Positions 5,495-38,101 of a stretch of 64,000 bases of DNA are shown one piece after another. Each line of letters starts with the position of its first letter. The first letter of the stretch is position 1. The DNA comes from a virus. Under the pieces are notes generated by a model. It ran no database searches, was not told the DNA's origin, and worked only from the letters and a program-made list of their open reading frames with translations. A program made the translations under genes and the position numbers. The stretch spans positions 1-64,000 of IMG/VR virus record IMGVR_UViG_3300007072_000007; one strand, 5' to 3'.

Positions 5495-6520
5495 ATGCCC
5501 ATCGTGATTGAGCACGTCAGCGACGACATTGAGCAGGCCGATGTCGATTCCCTTTACACGCCGGACGGGAACCTGACCGTCGAAGGTCAACTCATCGAGG
5601 ACTTCCTGAACTGGGTGGACTGGTCGCCCATCTTCGAGGATGCCTACTTCGACGCCATCAAGTACCGCACGACTGTTCCTGCCGACGCCATCGACGAGGA
5701 CGGCGAACCGGCGTTCTGGTCCCTGGACGAGAACGACGACGGCGACGGGCTGGTTACGATTGAGAGCATCGTCGGCGAGGACTTGGGCGACTACATCGAC
5801 GAGGACGACCTGTTCGAGTCGTTCTGCTACTACATCGAGAACCTGCCGGAGGACACGCTGGAAGAAAAGACCCGCAAGGCGGTCGGCCTTGCGATGGTCG
5901 GTCTGGAAGAGTCGAAGCGGTTCGGCCCCCGCGCAGTCAAAGAAATCATCGGTGGCGTCACCAAGGTCCGGCCCGCGTCGGCCGGGCCGTACCCCGGCAA
6001 GTTCAAGAACCTGCTGCGCAGGAAGAATCAAGCACCGCTCGCCAAGCGGCAGTTGAAGGCGATGTATTACAAGGGCGTGTACGACTACCGGACCAGGAAA
6101 GACGGTAACAAGCGCGTTGCGGTCGTCACCTACAAGTCGAGCGGCGTTCCGGCGGCGGTGAAGAAGTACAACAAGGTGAAAGCGATGATGCGGCAGAGTT
6201 CCAGCCTGCGGACGGCCCGGAAACTCGCTGGGAAGGACGCGAGCGGGGAGACCAAGGCCAAGGCTGTCGCCGGAAAGGCTACACCGAAGGTCAAGGCTGT
6301 CGCCGGAAAGGCTACACCGAAGGTCAAGAAAACGGCGGTGAAGCCGGTCAAGAAGGTTGCGAAGAAGGGCAAGTCGGTTCGACTGGCCGCGAGCGTCGGC
6401 GGTGAGGGCGGCGCGTACGCGCCTTCGGCTGGCCTGACGGAAGGCGCGTCGCTGGTGGCGGGTGTGTTCGCCCACCGCGCGAGCCAGACCGTGAATCTCC
6501 GCATCGACGAGAATCAGTAG
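5495..6520 (+). CDS. acidic N-terminus/lysine-rich C-terminus protein, probable head or DNA-associated protein
   Basis: The 341-aa protein starts at an ATG behind AGGAGTCAAAC, a ribosome-site sequence shared with the capsid and tube genes, so high expression is likely. Residues 1-130 are acidic. Residues 150-300 are Lys/Ala-rich like histone H1 tails and include an exact 11-residue tandem repeat (KAVAGKATPKV). RLAASVG near 300 is shared with the preceding gene, and the C-terminus reads LRIDENQ. It may bind or condense DNA in the prohead, or be a core protein. The family is unknown. Confidence 0.6.
   Translation: MPIVIEHVSDDIEQADVDSLYTPDGNLTVEGQLIEDFLNWVDWSPIFEDAYFDAIKYRTTVPADAIDEDGEPAFWSLDENDDGDGLVTIESIVGEDLGDYIDEDDLFESFCYYIENLPEDTLEEKTRKAVGLAMVGLEESKRFGPRAVKEIIGGVTKVRPASAGPYPGKFKNLLRRKNQAPLAKRQLKAMYYKGVYDYRTRKDGNKRVAVVTYKSSGVPAAVKKYNKVKAMMRQSSSLRTARKLAGKDASGETKAKAVAGKATPKVKAVAGKATPKVKKTAVKPVKKVAKKGKSVRLAASVGGEGGAYAPSAGLTEGASLVAGVFAHRASQTVNLRIDENQ
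6260..6325 (+). repeat. two perfect 33-bp tandem repeats inside a CDS
   Basis: Bases 6260-6292 and 6293-6325 are identical at the nucleotide level and encode KAVAGKATPKV twice. The perfect identity, including third positions, points to a recent duplication or slippage. Confidence 0.9.
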
Positions 6521-6535
6521 TATGCGAGGCAGTTC

Positions 6536-6874
6536 ATGCCAGACGGTCCCGACATACGCCCCGTCGAGGGTCTGACAGAATCCGCCGAGCAAGCCCTGCG
6601 AACATCCTCAATCTCCTCGGGATTAGCCGCCGTAGCCGCCAGAGCGAAAACCGCTCGGCCTGCGGCGGCTGTTCTTTCCGCCCGCCCGCAGCATCCCCCG
6701 TCCCGACCGCGCACGCTGGCGGATTTCGTCCGTGAGGTTTCAGACGGCTCGGACGATATCCTGGACGGCAGCACGCGCCCCGTTCCGGTGCGCTTCGGCG
6801 ATTCCGGTACGGCGGGCCGTCCGTCGTCCGGTGCGGGCATGGCGGCTGCTGCGCTGCGCAGGTTGCGGACATAG
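6536..6874 (+). CDS. Ala/Pro/Arg-rich protein of unknown function
   Basis: The 112-aa product is low-complexity (Ala, Pro, Arg, Ser) with one more ordered patch, TLADFVREVSDGSDDILDG. Third codon positions are mostly G or C as in its neighbours, which supports it over the overlapping frames. GAGG lies 8 bases before the ATG. It has no known domain. It follows the lysine-rich protein and could be another small head-associated protein. Confidence 0.5.
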   Translation: MPDGPDIRPVEGLTESAEQALRTSSISSGLAAVAARAKTARPAAAVLSARPQHPPSRPRTLADFVREVSDGSDDILDGSTRPVPVRFGDSGTAGRPSSGAGMAAAALRRLRT

Positions 6875-6888
6875 AAACGGGAACGAGG

Positions 6889-7317
6889 ATGCCTCTTCTG
6901 GCGGTCGTTGTCGGAAACGTCGATGCCGAAGCGATGGCTCGTCGGCATGGATGCGAGGTCGGGAAGCCCGGCTACCTGAAATATGTTCTCGAATCGAATA
7001 CCATCGTCGCCGTGCGCGATCTGAAGGACGTGGTGAAGGTCGCGGACGAAGCAAGGCGTTGTGGATTCACGTTGGGCGTGTTCGGGGCTGGTACGTTCCT
7101 TCAGGAGCAACTACGTTCGTTCTTCGCAACCCCGGCCGGTCCGGGCGAACGTCGAAAGAACAGGACTCTGCCGTCGGGGTCTGCGGCCCGCCGCAGACCT
7201 GATGACCGGGCGGATAATCGACATGAGGCTCACGGTTCCCCAGCCAGTCCGAATCGTCGCTTCCGGCGCGGTCGCTCTCCATTCGACCAGCCCGCTCCCC
7301 GGCACGGTCGGGGTTAG
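6889..7317 (+). CDS. protein of unknown function, alpha/beta N-terminal domain
   Basis: The 142-aa frame starts behind GAGG with a convincing alpha/beta domain over residues 1-85 (MPLLAVVVGNVDA, GYLKYVLESN, then helix VVKVADEARRCGF). The last 50 residues are basic and poorly ordered, and the final 116 bases overlap the next gene. Only the N-terminal part looks conserved. A sequencing frameshift or an out-of-frame tail is possible. No family was recognised. Confidence 0.5.
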   Translation: MPLLAVVVGNVDAEAMARRHGCEVGKPGYLKYVLESNTIVAVRDLKDVVKVADEARRCGFTLGVFGAGTFLQEQLRSFFATPAGPGERRKNRTLPSGSAARRRPDDRADNRHEAHGSPASPNRRFRRGRSPFDQPAPRHGRG

Positions 7318-8347
7318 CCTCGCCCGTCGGCTGGAGCGCGGGTCCATCGGCCTCGCCCAACTGGTTCGCGGGGCCGAGTACGTCGCCTGCCGGTTCCGGC
7401 GTGTGCAGGAAGCCCGAAACCTTCTCTACACGCCGGAAACGTCGGCTCTGCTTCGGTCGTGGGCGATGCACGGCGGGGACGCTGGCGCGGACTGGTTCCT
7501 GCGGGAGCGGAAAGCCGCGTCCGACGCCGGGGTGCTTCCCCCTGCCCCCCTGCTTTCCGTGTTCACGCTTCAACCGGAGGACATCTACAAGCGGTTCAAT
7601 CTCGGCGCGTGGAGGTTCGAGTATGGCCTGACTCCAGCCAAAGCGGCGCGTTTCGTCGAGGATTATGCGGAGGCGACAGGGAGGCAACTCGACTACCGCC
7701 GCGCTTTCGGGGACGCCGCTCCGGCCGTCATCAACGCCGTCTATCGCAGGACGGTCGGGATGTCGCCCATTCAGGCGGCCTATCACGCCATGCTGAGGCG
7801 GGGGTACGGTCAAGGGATGGACAGCGCGCTGCGAAACGGCTGGAGGACTCAGGAGGACGGGCTGGGGGACTTCCGCTGGCCCGACGTGGTAGCGTACTTC
7901 GCCGTCGCGTCGGAACAGCCGGGTTTTCTCAACGACCTGCACCAGCGCATGCCGCCGATTCCCGACGACGGGGATGGGGTCGGCCGCACGTCCCGCTGGC
8001 CCGCGCCCGTCCGTGCGATCCTTTCGAGATTCCACCCGTCCGGCGCGCTGTATGACCGCTACGCGAGCGTCGCTCCGCCCGTGATGGCCCTGCTGCGGAA
8101 GGTCGTGGATGGCGAGCGTGTTTCGTGGGCCGAGGCGGACGCGGTTCTCGCCCGCATCGCCGCGTATCAGCGGGAGAAGACCGTGGACGCAGGATTCGGG
8201 TCTTATCGCATCCTCGCCGAGTTCGTAGCCGCCGGGGACTGGTTTTCGCTCCATGCGTCCATCCCTCTCGATTCGGAGATGCGGGTCGCTTTCCTGCGGT
8301 TCGCGCAGTACCTCGACCGGATGATGCCATTTACGCAGCGTAAATAG
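7202..8347 (+). CDS. protein of unknown function (about 381 aa)
   Basis: The frame is open from well upstream. ATG at 7202 (MTGRIIDMRL) or 7223 (MRLTVPQPV) is the likely start, neither with a strong ribosome site. The protein is mostly helical, with aromatic-rich stretches (FNLGAWRFEYGLTPAKAARF, YHAMLRRGYGQG, GRTSRWPAPVR), and looks soluble. It ends PFTQRK because the 17-bp palindrome at 8329-8345 forms its last codons and leads into the stop. No known domain. The position before the decoration and protease genes suggests a morphogenesis role. Confidence 0.6.
   Translation: MTGRIIDMRLTVPQPVRIVASGAVALHSTSPLPGTVGVSLARRLERGSIGLAQLVRGAEYVACRFRRVQEARNLLYTPETSALLRSWAMHGGDAGADWFLRERKAASDAGVLPPAPLLSVFTLQPEDIYKRFNLGAWRFEYGLTPAKAARFVEDYAEATGRQLDYRRAFGDAAPAVINAVYRRTVGMSPIQAAYHAMLRRGYGQGMDSALRNGWRTQEDGLGDFRWPDVVAYFAVASEQPGFLNDLHQRMPPIPDDGDGVGRTSRWPAPVRAILSRFHPSGALYDRYASVAPPVMALLRKVVDGERVSWAEADAVLARIAAYQREKTVDAGFGSYRILAEFVAAGDWFSLHASIPLDSEMRVAFLRFAQYLDRMMPFTQRK
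8329..8345. repeat. 17-bp palindrome, perfect copy
   Basis: ATTTACGCAGCGTAAAT forms the last codons and stop region of the gene ending at 8347. A second copy follows 28 bases later. Confidence 0.9.
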
Positions 8348-8356
8348 GGTCGCGGG

Positions 8357-8373
8357 ATTTACGCAGCGTAAAT
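8357..8373. repeat. 17-bp palindrome, perfect copy
   Basis: The second of a close pair. It ends 5 bases before the -35 element of the promoter at 8379-8408, a typical operator position. Confidence 0.9.
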
Positions 8374-8378
8374 CCGTG

Positions 8379-8408
8379 TTGTAAGGCACCCAGCGCGTCG
8401 GGTATATT
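8379..8408 (+). promoter_or_regulatory. candidate promoter for the head-gene block
   Basis: TTGTAA, an 18-base spacer and TATATT, with a 17-bp palindrome directly upstream. It would drive 8456 and the following protease and capsid genes. The -10 is good and the -35 is moderate. Confidence 0.5.
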
Positions 8409-8455
8409 CACGTTGCCCGCACTACGGTTGCTGGGTGTCTTTACAGGAGTCAGTC

Positions 8456-31338: not shown

Positions 31339-33813
31339 ATGCGGTTCACGCTAGAGAACGCGCGTAGCGCGCTTCAGCGGCATTGGGGGCACGCCGACTT
31401 TCGGCGGAGTCAGGTTCCCGTCATCGAGGCCGTCGCGGCAGGGAGCGACGTGCTCGCCGTCCTCCCGACCGGCGAGGGCAAGTCGGCCTGTTTTCAGATT
31501 CCGGCTCTACTCGACACCGAGCGCACCGCGCTGGTGGTCTCTCCGCTTATCGCGCTGATGAAGGATCAGTGCGATGATGCGGAACGACGCGGCATCGCCG
31601 CGTCGTTCGTCAACTCGCACATCGACGAGGCAGAAGCCGACGCTCGCCTGCGGCGTCTGGCCGACGGGGAGTTCCGGCTGTTCTACGTCTCGCCGGAGAC
31701 CCTGAAGACCCGCCGGTTCCGCGCCGCGCTCCAGCAAACCCGCGTCAGTTACTTGGTCGTTGACGAGGCGCATTGTCATCCGGCGGGAACCCGGATTAGC
31801 ACACCGACGGGGGATGTACCCATCGAAACCATCCAAGCCGGAGACGCGGTGTACGCCTACGACGGTCAGCGTGTTGTTGTGCGTCGCGTCACGGAGACGC
31901 AGGTAAAGTTCGTGGGTTGTCGCCGCCTGTTGCGGCTGGTGGCCCCATCGGGTAGCGTATTGCTCACGGACGACCATCCGGTGTTCGTGATCGGCAAAGG
32001 ATATGTCGCAGCGGGTCAGGTCAACACGGGCGACGAAGTGCTGCTTCTGCGGTCGGGTATTTCCCGACAGGCATTGGGAGCGGACGGGGGCGAGGGGGAG
32101 GCGTGTTCACTGACGTTCGCACAGCGGAGCGCGTCGGTCGCTGGACCTGAGGCGGGATGCGCGGTTGTCCGCTGCCGGGTGGACCGTGTTGAGGTTGTCG
32201 AACGACCTGATTACGACGAAACCGGACCGCGCGCGTGGGATGATCGAGTCGTGTTTGCGCTCACGGTCGCTGGCGAGCACAACTACTTCGCCGAAGGAAT
32301 CCTGACGCATAACTGTGCGTCACGCTGGGGGCACGACTTCCGGCCCGCCTACCTCCAGATTGCCGACTGTCTGCGGTACATCTCGCAAGTCTGCCCGGAG
32401 TGCGACGGCGACGCCGCAACCGTGGACGCCGAGGGCAACACCGTCGCCACCTGCGCCGCCTGTGGGGGGCGCGGCGGCACCCGACCGCAGATCATCGCCG
32501 TAACCGCAACGGCCACCGGCGACATCGAAGCGGACATCATGCGGTCGCTGGGCGTCACGGGCGATTACACGCGCATCGTCGCCGACCCGATCCGCCCCAA
32601 CCTCGATTATCGAGTTGTGTTCGCCGACAACGACTTGGAGACCTTCAAGCGCGTCGTCGGCCAGTGGGACATCGTGAACGGTCGGCACATCGTCTATGTC
32701 GGCACACGGAAGATGGCCGAACTACTCACGAAGATCATCGCCGAGCAGATCGGGTTCCGCACGTTGGGACCGGAGGCGAAGGCGTTGTCGTGGCAGGACC
32801 GTTGCCGTGCCGCGTATGCGGCCGGAGCCGAGCGCGTCGCGTTCTACCATGCGGGCATGAAGCGCGACGATTCGGTGGAGCGCGACGAGGACGGGCGCAC
32901 GCGGAAGGTGCTGGGGCGTGTGACCGTGCAGGAAAACTTCAAGTCGGGTCGCACGCCGGTCGTGGTGGCGACCTGCGCGTTCGGCATGGGCATCGACGTG
33001 CCGAACATCCGTAACGTCCTCCATTTCGGCGTGCCGGGCTGTCTGGAGGATTACGCGCAGGAAGCCGGGCGTGCCGGTCGGGATGGACAGCCCAGTGCGG
33101 TAACGATCATCTACTCCGAAAAGAGCGTATCGCTTCGGAAGTGGTTCATCGACCAGTCCAATCCGCGCCGGGAACTGTATGACCTTGTGTGGTCGTACCT
33201 GCTGGACCAGACCAAGCGGGTGCGTGTTCTGCGCAAGTCGGCGGCGTCCATCGCCTACGAGTTATGTGCGGAGCACGGCCCCAACACCATCACCGACGCG
33301 CAGGTACACTCCATCCTGTCCGCGTTGGAACTGCGCCGGGTCATCCGCCGCGCTCCCGCCGCCAGCGGCAGCGAGATCAAAGTCAACGTGGCGAAACTGC
33401 GGGCGGCGGCGAGCAACCCCGAACTGAACCGGACCGAGCGGGAGGTTGCCGACTACCTGCTGAATACCGTGGTTGAGCCGACGTTGGGCGGCACGGACCT
33501 GAAGACCCTGGACGTGGTTCTGGACCGCGAGGACATCGCCAACGCCGTGTCGCGGTCGGAAGCCACCGTCAAGCGTGCCCTGGACACGCTGGAGGAGGAC
33601 TATGGCGCGATCACGGTGTCGCCCACGTTCAACGGCAAGTCCACCGAACTGCTGTCGCGCCCCGACGTGCTGGACGACGTGCTTCCGTGGGATGAGATCG
33701 AAGCCAAGCGCGCCCGCGAAATCGCGCGGTTGGAGCGCATGCTGTCGTATTGCCGGTCCAGCGACAAGCGGCAGGCCATCCGAGACTACTTCCTGAAGGG
33801 TCCGGTCAGGTGA
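31339..33813 (+). CDS. RecQ-like ATP-dependent DNA helicase containing a mini-intein
   Basis: The 824-aa precursor starts at ATG behind GGAGG. The N-extein (1-145) has the SF2 start RRSQVPVIEAV and TGEGKS (44-49, Walker A), and ends at DEAH. The intein is residues 146-325. The C-extein resumes CASRWGHDFRP, the standard RecQ aromatic loop after motif II. A CPEC/CAACGG zinc-finger insert (about 353-375) lies before motif III (AVTATAT), and AGRAGRDG (motif VI) is near 570. Splicing would give about 644 aa. The protein should unwind DNA in recombination or restart. Without splicing the helicase cannot be active. Confidence 0.9.
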   Translation: MRFTLENARSALQRHWGHADFRRSQVPVIEAVAAGSDVLAVLPTGEGKSACFQIPALLDTERTALVVSPLIALMKDQCDDAERRGIAASFVNSHIDEAEADARLRRLADGEFRLFYVSPETLKTRRFRAALQQTRVSYLVVDEAHCHPAGTRISTPTGDVPIETIQAGDAVYAYDGQRVVVRRVTETQVKFVGCRRLLRLVAPSGSVLLTDDHPVFVIGKGYVAAGQVNTGDEVLLLRSGISRQALGADGGEGEACSLTFAQRSASVAGPEAGCAVVRCRVDRVEVVERPDYDETGPRAWDDRVVFALTVAGEHNYFAEGILTHNCASRWGHDFRPAYLQIADCLRYISQVCPECDGDAATVDAEGNTVATCAACGGRGGTRPQIIAVTATATGDIEADIMRSLGVTGDYTRIVADPIRPNLDYRVVFADNDLETFKRVVGQWDIVNGRHIVYVGTRKMAELLTKIIAEQIGFRTLGPEAKALSWQDRCRAAYAAGAERVAFYHAGMKRDDSVERDEDGRTRKVLGRVTVQENFKSGRTPVVVATCAFGMGIDVPNIRNVLHFGVPGCLEDYAQEAGRAGRDGQPSAVTIIYSEKSVSLRKWFIDQSNPRRELYDLVWSYLLDQTKRVRVLRKSAASIAYELCAEHGPNTITDAQVHSILSALELRRVIRRAPAASGSEIKVNVAKLRAAASNPELNRTEREVADYLLNTVVEPTLGGTDLKTLDVVLDREDIANAVSRSEATVKRALDTLEEDYGAITVSPTFNGKSTELLSRPDVLDDVLPWDEIEAKRAREIARLERMLSYCRSSDKRQAIRDYFLKGPVR
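31774..32313 (+). other. mini-intein (HINT domain) in the RecQ DEAH box
   Basis: 180 codons from the Cys of DEAHC to a terminal His-Asn. Block A is CHPAGTRISTPTGDVPIETI, block B contains LTDDHPVFV (T-x-x-H), and block F/G is GEHNYFAEGILTHN followed by Cys (+1). There is no room for a homing endonuclease, so this is a minimal cis-splicing intein. It lies directly after the catalytic DEAH, at the most conserved point of the helicase. Confidence 0.93.
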
Positions 33814-35416: not shown

Positions 35417-35514
35417 GCCTTGGCCCCCTATGTGACTACAGATTAGAGTTTGGAGAACTAGGTACTTAGGCAACCCCTTTGGGACAGCGCGTAAATCGAA
35501 CCGCTGCCGGAACA

Positions 35515-37092
35515 ATGCGTCGAGCCGTCATCAGCATCCGAGGCGCGTGGGCCTTCCTGCAGGGAGGCGAGGCGGTCATGGAGCGCGCCCTGGCTCTGGA
35601 CGACCCGAAGCGGTTCTTCAACTCCGCCTACCGTGAGCGCAGGTGGGACGGGAAGATTCGCCTGAACATCGGGCGGAAGTTTCCTGCCGGATTGACCGAT
35701 TACATTTCGAGCGAACTGAGGAAAGCGGGCTACGCGGTTTCGGTACTCACGGAAGCGCGCAGCGCGCCCTTGGACTTGAGCCGTTTCGACAGGAAGTATC
35801 TCGCGGGCATCACGCTTTGGGACCATCAGTACGAGGCCGTCCTGGCAATGCTCACGCACGAAAGGGGCGTCGTGAAAAGCGCGACGGGAAGCGGCAAGAC
35901 GGCGATTGCCGCAGCCGTATCGCGCTATCTGTGGGAGGAGTGTGGCTTGAAATCGCTGGTCATCACCAGCCGTCGGGGTCTTGCGAGACAGACCGCGAGG
36001 GTGTTTCGCCAATACTACGGGGACGACATCGAGGTCGGGCAGTTCGGGGACGGCGAAAAGACGGCGGGGACTGTTACGGTCGCCACCGCGCAATCGCTGG
36101 CGGCGTACTGGCCGAAGCGCATTTACAGCGCGAGAAATCGCCGGTATTCCCTCCGGCCCTGCGACCCGGCGGTTCGGCGGCTGGTTCGGGAAGCGGGCGT
36201 TCTCATCTACGACGAGTGCCATCATGCCGGTTCCTCAACGAGTTGGTTCGATGTCGGCATGGTCTGCCCTGCGGTTCGTCGGTATGGGATGTCCGGTACG
36301 CCGATCAAGGATGATGAGGTGGCGGACCTTCGGCTCATTGGTGCGACAGGTCCGGTCATCTACGACGCATCGGCCTCCGACATGATTTCGGTCGGGTTGG
36401 CGAGGCGTCCTCGCATCGTGGTGATCGCGTCGGCCAGCGCTAGCGGTCCTTCCCTGCCGTCTGTCGAGACGGTGCTGGACGAGGACGGGGATTCGGTTTC
36501 CGTTCCCATGCCCTACGCGACGGCGTACCGTCGCGGCGTCGTCGAGAGCGAGCATCACAACCGGACGGTTACGGCGGCTGTTCGCTGGCTGGTCGAGCGG
36601 GACCGGAGAGTGCTTGTTCCTTGCCGTAGGATGGACCATCTGGAACGCCTGCATCGCGCGTTTTCCGATGCGGGCATCGCGCACGCCAAACTGTCGGGGC
36701 GGACGGATACCCGGCTGCGGGACATGGCGAAGGCTGCGTTTACGGACCAGACGTTCAACGTCATCCTCGCTACCGTTATTTTCGACGAAGGCGAGGACGT
36801 GCCTGCCATCGACGCCATCGTGCTGGCCGAGGGAGTCAAGTCGGTCGTCCCGACCATCCAGCGAATCGGGCGCGGGATGCGGGTCCAGAGGGACGGCCCG
36901 ACCGACCTGTGGGTGGTGGACATCGCGCCTACGTCCAGCCCGGTGCTTTGGAGTCATGCCGTCCAGCGGGTTGAGGCGTATGAGCGGGAGGGGTATGACG
37001 TGACGCTGCTGACCGAGTGGCCTGCGAGCGTGGACCCGGCGAATCCCCCCGATAACCTTCTGCCATTCGAGGAGTTGGTCCGTGCGGATTGA
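35515..37092 (+). CDS. SF2 DNA helicase, UvsW/DEAD-like
   Basis: The frame extends to a TTG at 35479, but ATG 35515 is the most likely start (525 aa). It has motif I ATGSGKTAIA (near 122), motif Ia (LVITSRRGLARQ), DECHH (near 231, DExH box), GMSGTPI (motif III), TVIFDEGEDVP (motif V) and QRIGRGMR (motif VI). The first 110 residues form a UvsW-type N-terminal domain. UvsW-like helicases branch-migrate recombination intermediates and remove R-loops. A half palindrome (CAGCGCGTAAAT) lies just before the ATG. A short Cys-rich gene overlaps its end. Confidence 0.85.
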   Translation: MRRAVISIRGAWAFLQGGEAVMERALALDDPKRFFNSAYRERRWDGKIRLNIGRKFPAGLTDYISSELRKAGYAVSVLTEARSAPLDLSRFDRKYLAGITLWDHQYEAVLAMLTHERGVVKSATGSGKTAIAAAVSRYLWEECGLKSLVITSRRGLARQTARVFRQYYGDDIEVGQFGDGEKTAGTVTVATAQSLAAYWPKRIYSARNRRYSLRPCDPAVRRLVREAGVLIYDECHHAGSSTSWFDVGMVCPAVRRYGMSGTPIKDDEVADLRLIGATGPVIYDASASDMISVGLARRPRIVVIASASASGPSLPSVETVLDEDGDSVSVPMPYATAYRRGVVESEHHNRTVTAAVRWLVERDRRVLVPCRRMDHLERLHRAFSDAGIAHAKLSGRTDTRLRDMAKAAFTDQTFNVILATVIFDEGEDVPAIDAIVLAEGVKSVVPTIQRIGRGMRVQRDGPTDLWVVDIAPTSSPVLWSHAVQRVEAYEREGYDVTLLTEWPASVDPANPPDNLLPFEELVRAD

Positions 37093-37984
37093 TCGAACAC
37101 CTGCACCTGCGCGCCGTCCGCTGTGCTACGGGCGGAGTTACGGACGCGAGGGCCTCTGCGCCTCCTGTCCGTTCGCTTCGGAGTGCCGCCGCGTCTGCGC
37201 CCAGTGGTCTGGCGTGTTGTCGCTGGCGGAAGCGTCCCAGCGCGCCCTGGATGCCTTCCGCAGTTCGCTCGCGGACCGGAAGCCGGACGGGACGCTTTAT
37301 GAGCGGGTCTATGCGGACGTGTACGGCCGCAGGCCGAACCCGAAGTCGAAGTGTGCCTACGACTACGCGATGTTCCAGGTCGTTGAACTGTGCGGACGGA
37401 AGGGAATCGACCCCGCTGTTTATGTTCGCGCTCAGATGGAATCCCTGCGTGATGCCGTGCAGCGAATCAAGGTTCGCGGCAGGAGTCTGGGCTTCCAGCC
37501 GAACATGCTGTTCGGATTACGGGCCATGTACCGCTACGAGGCTTTCCGCTCCGCTGCGGAGAAGCGGTACGGGGCGAAGTTCGCGTCGGCTTTCTCCGAG
37601 CGCGGAAAACTCGAAACGATGCTGGTCGAGTTGACCGAAGCGGAGACGGAGTACGGGGAATCGTTGTTGTCAGGCGCGCGCTTTTCCGGTCCGCCGTTGT
37701 GGTCTGCGCTGCGTCTGGAAGGGGCGAGTCCAGAGGGCCGAAGGATTCGGCGCGACTACGGTTCCGACGTGGTGGACAGGATGATTCGCGCCGCTTTCAT
37801 GGCTGCCGCCTGTGCCGTCGCCAACCGCCGTCGTGCCGGTTTGGCGAATCGCATCGGCATCACGACGCCCGACGACGTGGAGTGGGACGACATCATTGCC
37901 GCCGTTCGGCGGTACGCCCCCGATTGTCCGCGCGATTTACGCAGCGTAAATGTGGTCGGCGAGTGGCTTCCCGGTCAGGCTTGA
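37082..37984 (+). CDS. Cys-cluster helical protein of unknown function
   Basis: GTG 37082 follows GAGGAGTTGGTCC and overlaps the helicase stop. The 300-aa protein begins with a cysteine cluster (LCYGRSYGREGLCASCPF, then SECRRVC), which may bind a metal or Fe-S cluster; the rest is helical and basic. The palindrome copy at 37935 is read in frame as DLRSVN near the C-terminus and another overlaps its stop. A small protein at 41882 has the same CYG..C..C..C pattern. It lies between helicase and origin-like region, so a replication role is possible. Confidence 0.6.
   Translation: MRIDRTPAPARRPLCYGRSYGREGLCASCPFASECRRVCAQWSGVLSLAEASQRALDAFRSSLADRKPDGTLYERVYADVYGRRPNPKSKCAYDYAMFQVVELCGRKGIDPAVYVRAQMESLRDAVQRIKVRGRSLGFQPNMLFGLRAMYRYEAFRSAAEKRYGAKFASAFSERGKLETMLVELTEAETEYGESLLSGARFSGPPLWSALRLEGASPEGRRIRRDYGSDVVDRMIRAAFMAAACAVANRRRAGLANRIGITTPDDVEWDDIIAAVRRYAPDCPRDLRSVNVVGEWLPGQA
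37935..37951. repeat. 17-bp palindrome, perfect copy
   Basis: ATTTACGCAGCGTAAAT, in frame inside the 3' end of the preceding gene (DLRSVN). First of three copies spaced 49 and 45 bases (start to start). Confidence 0.9.
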
Positions 37985-38000
37985 TTTACGCAGCGTAAAT
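37984..38000. repeat. 17-bp palindrome, perfect copy
   Basis: Starts on the final base of the preceding gene's TGA stop. It is followed by AGGGCCGCGCGT, which also follows the next copy. Confidence 0.9.
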
Positions 38001-38028
38001 AGGGCCGCGCGTATCTCCTGTCGGCTTG

Positions 38029-38045
38029 ATTTACGCAGCGTAAAT
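38029..38045. repeat. 17-bp palindrome, perfect copy
   Basis: Third of the cluster. Its right end is 29 bases before the -35 of the promoter at 38074. The 28 bases after it duplicate those after the second copy for 12 positions. Confidence 0.9.
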
Positions 38046-38073
38046 AGGGCCGCGCGTGGCTTCCCGGTCAGGC

Positions 38074-38101
38074 TTGACTTCTGTTGCGTTTGTGCTACTG
38101 T
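38074..38101 (+). promoter_or_regulatory. promoter of the helicase-primase operon
   Basis: TTGACT, a 16-base spacer and TACTGT. Initiation near 38108 would give a 5' leader of about 130 nt that contains the inverted repeat. Confidence 0.6.

What the first reader, a model, noticed from the sequence alone, without database searches (positions are those of the whole stretch)
31774..32313. Mini-intein placed inside the RecQ DEAH motif
A 180-residue HINT domain with blocks A, B, F and G and Cys +1 interrupts DEAH-C at the catalytic motif II. It has no endonuclease. Inteins in phage helicases and polymerases occur, but a RecQ interrupted exactly at DEAH is notable. It makes helicase activity depend on splicing and may act as a redox or temperature switch.
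Basis: partly seen in the sequence, partly recalled or inferred. Interest (0 to 1): 0.7.

Follow-up and report, generated by a model that had tools for sequence, protein, structure and literature searches.

The report
RecQ mini-intein hiding an endonuclease relic
A phage RecQ DNA-unwinding enzyme is interrupted at its catalytic motif by a self-splicing protein element (an intein), and the DNA of that element also carries, in a shifted reading frame, the decayed remains of a second gene for a DNA-cutting enzyme; intact relatives are widespread in phages and point to a little-recognised way for inteins to stay mobile.

Summary
ORF 31339-33813 (824 aa) is a RecQ-family helicase interrupted by a contiguous 180-aa mini-intein at 31774-32313, between DEAH and the next Cys. 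Removing it restores DEAHCASRWGHDF, the sequence of intein-free phage relatives. It has the blocks and a predicted HINT fold of a class 1 intein.

'No endonuclease' needs correcting. In the +1 frame of the same intein DNA lies the relic of an EDxHD/Vsr-type homing endonuclease (32003-32113 and 32114-32305). DUF559 hits above its Pfam cut-off, and it is the only DUF559 hit in six frames of the 74-kb record. Frame-0 constraint does not explain it (0 of 10,000 shuffles).

In relatives the endonuclease is intact and always +1, starts after block B, and usually stops inside blocks F/G. Of 80 IMG/VR loci, 77 show this nesting, as do cultured phages CP-T1 and phi673. Substitution patterns show that selection acts on the +1 protein.

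Best reading: a decayed member of a widespread intein class with an out-of-frame homing endonuclease. I found no report of this arrangement in inteins in the library searched. The redox/temperature switch has no support. Splicing is untested.

The parts
31339..33813 (+). RecQ-family helicase precursor ORF, 824 aa plus stop; spliced product 644 aa
   Evidence: TIGR00614 recQ_fam 230.8 bits over cut-off 219.8, E 2.8e-68, even with the intein inside
31339..31773 (+). N-extein, aa 1-145, ending in motif II ..VVDEAH
31774..32313 (+). mini-intein, 180 aa, Cys1 to Asn180, HINT fold
31774..31776 (+). Cys1, N-terminal nucleophile, start of block A (CHPAGTRISTP)
   Evidence: column C4 (= Cys1) at least 90% conserved in A7
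31966..31977 (+). block B TxxH motif (Thr65-Asp-Asp-His68)
   Evidence: sequence; His column at least 90% conserved in A7
32248..32298 (+). block F (VVFALTVAGEHNYFAEG); the usual Asp/Cys/Asn position is Ala
   Evidence: sequence; class consensus VYNxEVEGxHxYFANG
32299..32313 (+). block G (ILTHN) with penultimate His179 and Asn180; contains the +1-frame stop of the endonuclease relic
   Evidence: Asn invariant and His at least 90% conserved in A7
32003..32113 (+). +1-frame N-terminal fragment of the hidden endonuclease: ATG, 36 codons with one zinc-finger half (KCCFCGRVF), ending in a premature TGA (weak match on its own)
32114..32305 (+). +1-frame C-terminal fragment of the hidden EDxHD/DUF559 endonuclease (SHSGARRSLDLRRDARLSAAGWTVLRLSND..), stop TGA ending 8 nt before the intein end; lacks the catalytic E-x-D-G, hence a pseudogene
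   Evidence: DUF559 24.9 bits > 20.6; only six-frame DUF559 hit in the record; 37.8 bits, 0/10,000 shuffles
32314..33810 (+). C-extein from Cys+1 (CASRWGHDFRPAY..), with a CxxC...CxxC zinc-ribbon-like insertion absent from L006 and L007

Best explanation
The element is a cis-splicing class 1 intein in motif II of a phage RecQ helicase. It is a decayed member of an intein class whose homing endonuclease is encoded not within the intein polypeptide but in the +1 reading frame of the same DNA. Intact members: ribosomes reading frame 0 make the precursor, whose Hint domain splices itself out and rejoins motif II. The linker between the two Hint halves is the frame-0 reading of the endonuclease gene, an open but disordered loop. 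A second translation start inside the intein, just after block B, yields an EDxHD (Vsr/I-Bth0305I-like, DUF559) endonuclease with zinc fingers. It would cut intein-free alleles at the DNA for motif II, and repair would copy the intein in. In this phage, deletions that kept frame 0 open removed the catalytic part. What remains is a 180-aa mini-intein that still has to splice for RecQ to work but can no longer home by itself. Shown by sequence: intein anatomy, insertion site, empty-site relatives, the +1 relic, intact +1 relatives, purifying selection on the +1 frame and openness of frame 0. Inferred: splicing, internal initiation, DNA cleavage and homing.
For: Intein. Empty sites and sporadic distribution: (L014 is sister to intein-free L020; L022/L033 lie beside intein-free L028/L029; the window groups with intein-free L007, support 0.89). 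Relic in the window: DUF559 E 1.9e-5, above cut-off; sole six-frame hit in 74 kb; 37.8 bits against the hidden-endonuclease profile, synonymous-shuffle maximum 20.3 in 10,000; stop at -8 from the intein end, the commonest stop position in intact members (21 of 67). Intact relatives: DUF559 E 1e-8 to 1e-12 for the +1 ORFs of L002, L004, L018, L022, L033 and L006; nested at +1 in 77/80 IMG/VR loci and all 4 isolate-phage loci tested; catalytic E, D, G, H, D invariant in 45 sequences; AlphaFold2 pLDDT 88 with best PDB matches 3hrl and homing endonuclease I-Bth0305I, probability 1.00. Selection on +1: L002 vs L003 differences at frame-0 codon positions 1/2/3 are 35/6/1 inside the hidden ORF and 1/1/16 outside; most of 30 further, non-independent pairs show the same trend. 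Frame 0 kept open: 67/67 loci against 0.12 expected from synonymous shuffling of the endonuclease; +2 frame open in 0/67. Internal start: Shine-Dalgarno-like 4-mers upstream of the first +1 ATG in 29/67 against 46/513 later ATGs, p = 2e-11; median start at intein aa 85. Decay series in RecQ inteins: 327 aa with full ORF (L018), 199 aa (L006, keeps E-x-D-G-x-x-H), 185 aa (L014, lost), 180 aa (window).
Against: No splicing, cleavage or homing experiment exists. Block F carries Ala where Asp, Cys or Asn is usual, which could slow splicing; L006 shares the Ala. The length of the window's +1 ORF alone is not significant, so that case rests on homology. The 80 loci were picked by similarity to nested endonucleases, so 77/80 does not measure how often the whole family is nested. 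Foldseek E-values for the endonuclease model are modest (6e-3 to 1e-2) although probability is 1.00. Only 29 of 67 first ATGs have an SD-like signal, so how the other +1 ORFs are translated is open. The few close-pair substitution tests have small counts, and L122/L164 shows no clear signal.
Confidence: 0.9

Rival explanations
1. An ordinary mini-intein that lost an in-frame endonuclease (LAGLIDADG or HNH) in the usual way; the +1 similarity is chance or a by-product of the conserved Hint strand before block F.
For: No frame-0 endonuclease; the +1 match overlaps the RVDRVEVVE strand, so some +1 similarity could follow from frame-0 homology. Canonical inteins in Cane17 and PS1 do carry in-frame LAGLIDADG motifs by eye.
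Against: Shuffles that keep the frame-0 protein never reach the observed score (0/4000 with an independent 5-sequence profile; 0/10,000). L006 keeps E-x-D-G-x-x-H in the +1 frame, and L018, L022 and L033 keep the whole gene.
Confidence: 0.05
2. A regulated intein kept as a redox or temperature switch for RecQ activity.
For: Motif II is unusable until splicing; conditional splicing is known for other inteins (for example mycobacterial DnaB, PMC6195587).
Against: Cysteines other than Cys1, Cys+1 and one linker Cys are not conserved in L006; the intein is absent from close relatives and its distribution is sporadic; GC3 marks it as foreign.
Confidence: 0.05
3. A non-splicing insertion like the ShiLan element: an out-of-frame endonuclease inserted in a host gene whose frame-0 reading stays in the protein.
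For: Same out-of-frame logic in a phage gene (PMC11855218).
Against: Here both sides of the endonuclease are Hint halves with Cys1, TxxH, HN and Cys+1; insertion in motif II without removal should destroy ATPase activity; ShiLan elements lack splicing domains.
Confidence: 0.03
4. Split-gene (trans-splicing) arrangement, as in 'fractured genes' with split inteins and EDxHD endonucleases.
For: Same endonuclease family; L099 (near-identical to L100 over the match) has stops in the frame-0 linker with the endonuclease still at +1.
Against: In the window and all 67 loci frame 0 is continuous, so splicing would be in cis.
Confidence: 0.02

Closest known systems
Class 1 mini-inteins (Ssp/Npu DnaB, Mtu RecA mini-intein) and bacterial intein-like (BIL) domains
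   Same: HINT fold, Cys1, TxxH, HN|C, position in a conserved ATPase motif
   Different: Extein is RecQ motif II; block F position is Ala; the linker overlaps an out-of-frame endonuclease relic
EDxHD homing endonucleases / I-Bth0305I (PDB 3r3p) and DUF559 (PF04480)
   Same: E-x-D-G-x-x-H...D catalytic pattern invariant in intact relatives; fold match
   Different: Encoded at +1 inside a contiguous intein rather than in an intron, free-standing or between split genes; catalytically dead in the window
ShiLan element, out-of-frame HNH in a mycobacteriophage methylase (PMC11855218)
   Same: Endonuclease hidden out of frame in a host ORF that stays open
   Different: HNH not EDxHD; no intein or other splicing domain; the third frame there against +1 here
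'Fractured genes' with split inteins and EDxHD endonucleases (Dassa et al. 2009; known to me from citations, text not held)
   Same: Same endonuclease family between the two intein halves
   Different: The gene is not split here; L099/L100 look like the intermediate
Mycobacteriophage inteins at Walker A, Walker B and C-motif of terminases (PMC5050341)
   Same: Insertion in ATPase motifs of phage proteins
   Different: Terminase not RecQ; no out-of-frame endonuclease mentioned in the passages read

Membership tests
Intein (class 1) | N-terminal Cys/Ser nucleophile with block A | tested here: met
   Cys1 at 31774; Hint_2 E 8e-9
Intein (class 1) | Block B TxxH | tested here: met
   T65-D-D-H68; His at least 90% conserved in A7
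Intein (class 1) | Block F with the usual Asp/Cys/Asn | tested here: not met
   Ala in the window and L006, Ser in L014, class consensus Asn; an accessory feature, not defining on its own
Intein (class 1) | His-Asn end and Cys/Ser/Thr +1 | tested here: met
   HN|C; TIGR01443 24.9 bits > 15.6
Intein (class 1) | Removal restores an intact host protein | tested here: met
   DEAHCASRWGHDF equals intein-free L007
Intein (class 1) | HINT fold | tested here: met
   AlphaFold2 and Foldseek
Intein (class 1) | Protein splicing activity | not testable with these tools
   needs expression
RecQ family helicase | TIGR00614 above cut-off | tested here: met
   230.8 > 219.8
RecQ family helicase | Equivalog to bacterial RecQ (TIGR01389) | tested here: not met
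   298 < 640 bits; a divergent phage RecQ
EDxHD homing endonuclease (hidden ORF, intact relatives) | E, D, H, D catalytic residues | tested here: met
   invariant in 45 sequences
EDxHD homing endonuclease (window relic) | E, D, H, D catalytic residues | tested here: not met
   E-x-D-G deleted, premature TGA: homologous relic, not a functional member
EDxHD homing endonuclease | Site-specific cleavage and homing | not testable with these tools
   only sporadic distribution and foreign GC3
ShiLan-type out-of-frame element | No splicing domain | tested here: not met
   full Hint domain present
Fractured gene / split intein | Host gene split by stop codons | tested here: not met
   contiguous 824-aa ORF; met in L099/L100

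The most novel reading that the evidence does not exclude
Phages carry a widespread class of mobile inteins, aimed at the motif II (DE|CH, DEAH|C) DNA of helicases and clamp loaders, whose homing endonuclease is a separate protein translated from the +1 frame of the intein gene. The frame-0 linker is a by-product of overprinting, and endonuclease loss through frame-preserving deletions (this window) or a frame-0 stop (L099) generates mini-inteins and split inteins. Hidden LAGLIDADG (L027) suggests that more than one endonuclease family has done this.
Probability: 0.72. Interest if true: 0.87.

Novelty: new variant of a known kind. Interest (0 to 1): 0.77.

Why it matters
Mobile inteins are described as bifunctional polypeptides with the endonuclease domain nested in frame. 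Here the endonuclease is overprinted in another frame, so standard annotation reads it as a featureless linker and calls such elements mini-inteins (Vibrio, Pseudomonas and Corynebacterium phage records label the genes 'helicase' or 'hypothetical'). This changes how mini- and split inteins may arise, supplies many long conserved same-strand overlapping genes for studying double coding, and adds an untested set of endonucleases likely to recognise DNA for a near-universal ATPase motif. The question is directly testable in cultured laboratory phages.

Tried and rejected
A cellular source of RecQ inteins: a RecQ-selective DEAHCxxx[DGE]T scan of about 85,000 genomes gave no intein; it misses inteins that start differently. 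A similarity search of plasmids gave only Hint domains of polymorphic toxins and similar proteins. Redox-switch idea: cysteines not conserved. The window's +1 ORF judged by length alone: not significant, so homology and shuffle tests were used. 'All EDxHD/DUF559 genes are nested': rejected, as 20 gammaproteobacterial DUF559 loci show no such nesting in an intein and L132 looks free-standing. L018 begins with Ala rather than Cys; class 3 was considered but the block F Cys is missing, so it was left unclassified. L008's long intein linker does not match the endonuclease profile. Literature: 10 searches; only the ShiLan work reports an out-of-frame endonuclease, and not in an intein. The papers by Dassa 2009 and Taylor 2011 are not held.

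Full report
OBSERVATION. The window is part of a 74,244-bp IMG/VR virus record. ORF 31339-33813 encodes 824 aa. Pfam and NCBIfam find DEAD/DEAH helicase, Helicase_C and the RecQ family (TIGR00614, 230.8 bits over a cut-off of 219.8), interrupted by Hint_2 and the intein C-terminal region. The interruption runs from Cys146 (31774) to Asn325 (32313): VSYLVVDEAH | CHPAGT..GILTHN | CASRWGHDF. Another IMG/VR contig repeats the region at 99.99% over 8.9 kb, so the junctions are not an assembly slip. Because the ORF is continuous in frame 0, an RNA intron is not needed to explain it.

INTEIN. Cys1, TDDH in block B, HNYFAEG in block F and ILTHN|C in blocks G/+1 are present. The model has core pLDDT 93-98 and a disordered linker around residues 100-130. 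Its best solved matches are a bacterial intein-like domain and the Ssp DnaB, Npu DnaB and Mtu RecA mini-inteins. One atypical point: block F has Ala where Asp, Cys or Asn is usual; L006 shares it. GC3 is 0.67 in the intein and 0.81-0.88 in extein windows of equal size, and 0.60 against 0.81-0.83 in L006, which marks it as foreign.

SITE AND RELATIVES. A phage with a 46%-identical RecQ extein (L006) has the same intein at the same position; L007, L015, L016 and others have the empty DEAHC[AV]SxWGHDF site. Other phage RecQs have inteins at DEAHC|C (L014), DEAH|A (L018), DEAH|C with a different intein (L022, L033) and DE|C (L027). L033 has three inteins, at Walker A, motif II and motif VI. The RecQ tree shows sporadic occupation. 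A DEAHCxxx[DGE]T scan found several other phage helicases with inteins there but no cellular RecQ. So the site is a phage hotspot rather than a one-off.

THE HIDDEN ENDONUCLEASE. The linkers of these inteins look like nonsense, so all frames were read. The +1 frame of the intein DNA encodes a protein with zinc fingers, NPM and GGNG motifs and E-x-D-G-x-S-H...D..K...GWxVxRxSN. Pfam assigns it to DUF559 with E 1e-8 to 1e-12 in L002, L004, L018, L022, L033 and L006. AlphaFold2 gives pLDDT 88, and the nearest solved folds are 3hrl and homing endonuclease I-Bth0305I. In L027 the +1 protein is instead a LAGLIDADG endonuclease (E 1e-21).

RELIC IN THE WINDOW. In the +1 frame of the window intein, 32114-32302 hits DUF559 at 24.9 bits (cut-off 20.6), and a six-frame scan of the whole record gives this as the only DUF559 hit. 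Against a 45-sequence profile of the hidden endonucleases the window scores 37.8 bits. Among 10,000 shuffles of synonymous codons that keep the intein protein the maximum is 20.3. An independent five-sequence profile from other intein lineages gives 0 of 4,000. The relic has a start and half a zinc finger (32003-32110; a weak match on its own), a premature TGA (32111-32113), no E-x-D-G, and a final TGA ending 8 nt before the intein end, the commonest stop position among intact members (21 of 67). It is therefore a pseudogene. L018 (327 aa), L006 (199 aa), L014 (185 aa) and the window (180 aa) form a plausible decay series.

HOW GENERAL. A scan of IMG/VR with the hidden-endonuclease alignment found at least 332 relatives and kept the best 80. 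In 77 the gene is exactly +1 within a host ORF that stays open across it, and in 76 an intein end (HN|C or variant) follows; L089 runs off its contig. Vibrio phage CP-T1, Corynebacterium phage phi673 and two further Vibrio isolates show the same. Insertion is mostly DE|C, in SF2 and SNF2-type helicases and clamp-loader ATPases. The exceptions are instructive: L099 and L100 have frame-0 stops in the linker, that is, a split gene with the endonuclease still at +1 (only L099 was read through), and L132 looks free-standing. These loci were chosen by similarity to nested genes; 20 gammaproteobacterial DUF559 loci are not nested in inteins.

BOTH FRAMES ARE UNDER SELECTION. Between two Vibrio phages, differences inside the hidden ORF fall 35/6/1 on frame-0 codon positions 1/2/3 and outside it 1/1/16; +1 protein identity is 97% against 87% in frame 0. 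Most of 30 further, overlapping pairs show the same trend; L122/L164 does not. Conversely frame 0 is open in 67/67 loci although synonymous reshuffling of the endonuclease predicts 0.12, while frame +2 is open in none. SD-like 4-mers precede the first +1 ATG in 29/67 cases against 46/513 for later ATGs (p = 2e-11), and that ATG lies at a median 85 aa into the intein, just after block B. The +1 stop lies within 75 nt of the intein end in 65/67. This supports internal initiation (inference).

MECHANISM AND STATUS. Best reading: cis splicing of the intein (inferred from anatomy) makes RecQ. In intact relatives a separately translated +1 endonuclease drives homing into motif II DNA (inferred). In this phage only the splicing part survives. 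The redox or temperature switch is unsupported.

NOVELTY. Inteins in ATPase motifs, EDxHD endonucleases and an out-of-frame endonuclease in a non-intein insertion (PMC11855218) are known. Their combination, a contiguous intein with an overprinted endonuclease, was not found in ten literature searches of an open-access library, which cannot exclude a report elsewhere. I class it as a new variant of a known kind; the window itself is a decayed example.

Noticed in passing
L033 (IMGVR_UViG_3300035698_006372), ORF 5890-10824: A phage RecQ with three inteins, at Walker A (GYGK|C), motif II (DEAH|C) and motif VI (YQA|C..HN|CGRAGRDG); by eye, the first and third carry in-frame LAGLIDADG motifs and the middle one a +1-frame EDxHD endonuclease.
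   Followed up: partly
L027 (IMGVR_UViG_3300043400_000009), 6470-7363: RecQ-like intein at DE|C whose +1 frame encodes a LAGLIDADG_2 endonuclease (E 1e-21), so out-of-frame nesting is not limited to EDxHD.
   Followed up: partly
L099 and L100 (IMG/VR): SNF2-type helicase split by frame-0 stops within the intein linker with the endonuclease still at +1; a possible intermediate to 'fractured genes' with split inteins.
   Followed up: partly
L091, L098, L126, L131, L083: The intein's conserved Asp-Glu-Val codons read GAYGAGGTN, so GAGG may double as the Shine-Dalgarno for the +1 ATG 6-9 nt downstream.
   Followed up: partly
L018, intein 6424-7404: RecQ intein starting with Ala instead of Cys (DEAH|AHRQGS..LTHN|C) yet with an intact +1 endonuclease; splicing class unclear.
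   Followed up: no
window 42095-45082: Uracil-DNA glycosylase domain fused N-terminally to a 3'-5' exonuclease and family A DNA polymerase in one 995-aa ORF.
   Followed up: no
window 35479-37092: UvsW-like SF2 helicase next to RecQ with an unoccupied DECHH motif, the usual DE|CH target of this intein class.
   Followed up: no
window 32389-32475: CxxC...CxxC zinc-ribbon-like insertion between RecQ motifs II and III, absent from L006 and L007.
   Followed up: no
window 37925-38077: Short direct repeats (82-87% identical) just upstream of the DnaB-like helicase ORF.
   Followed up: no
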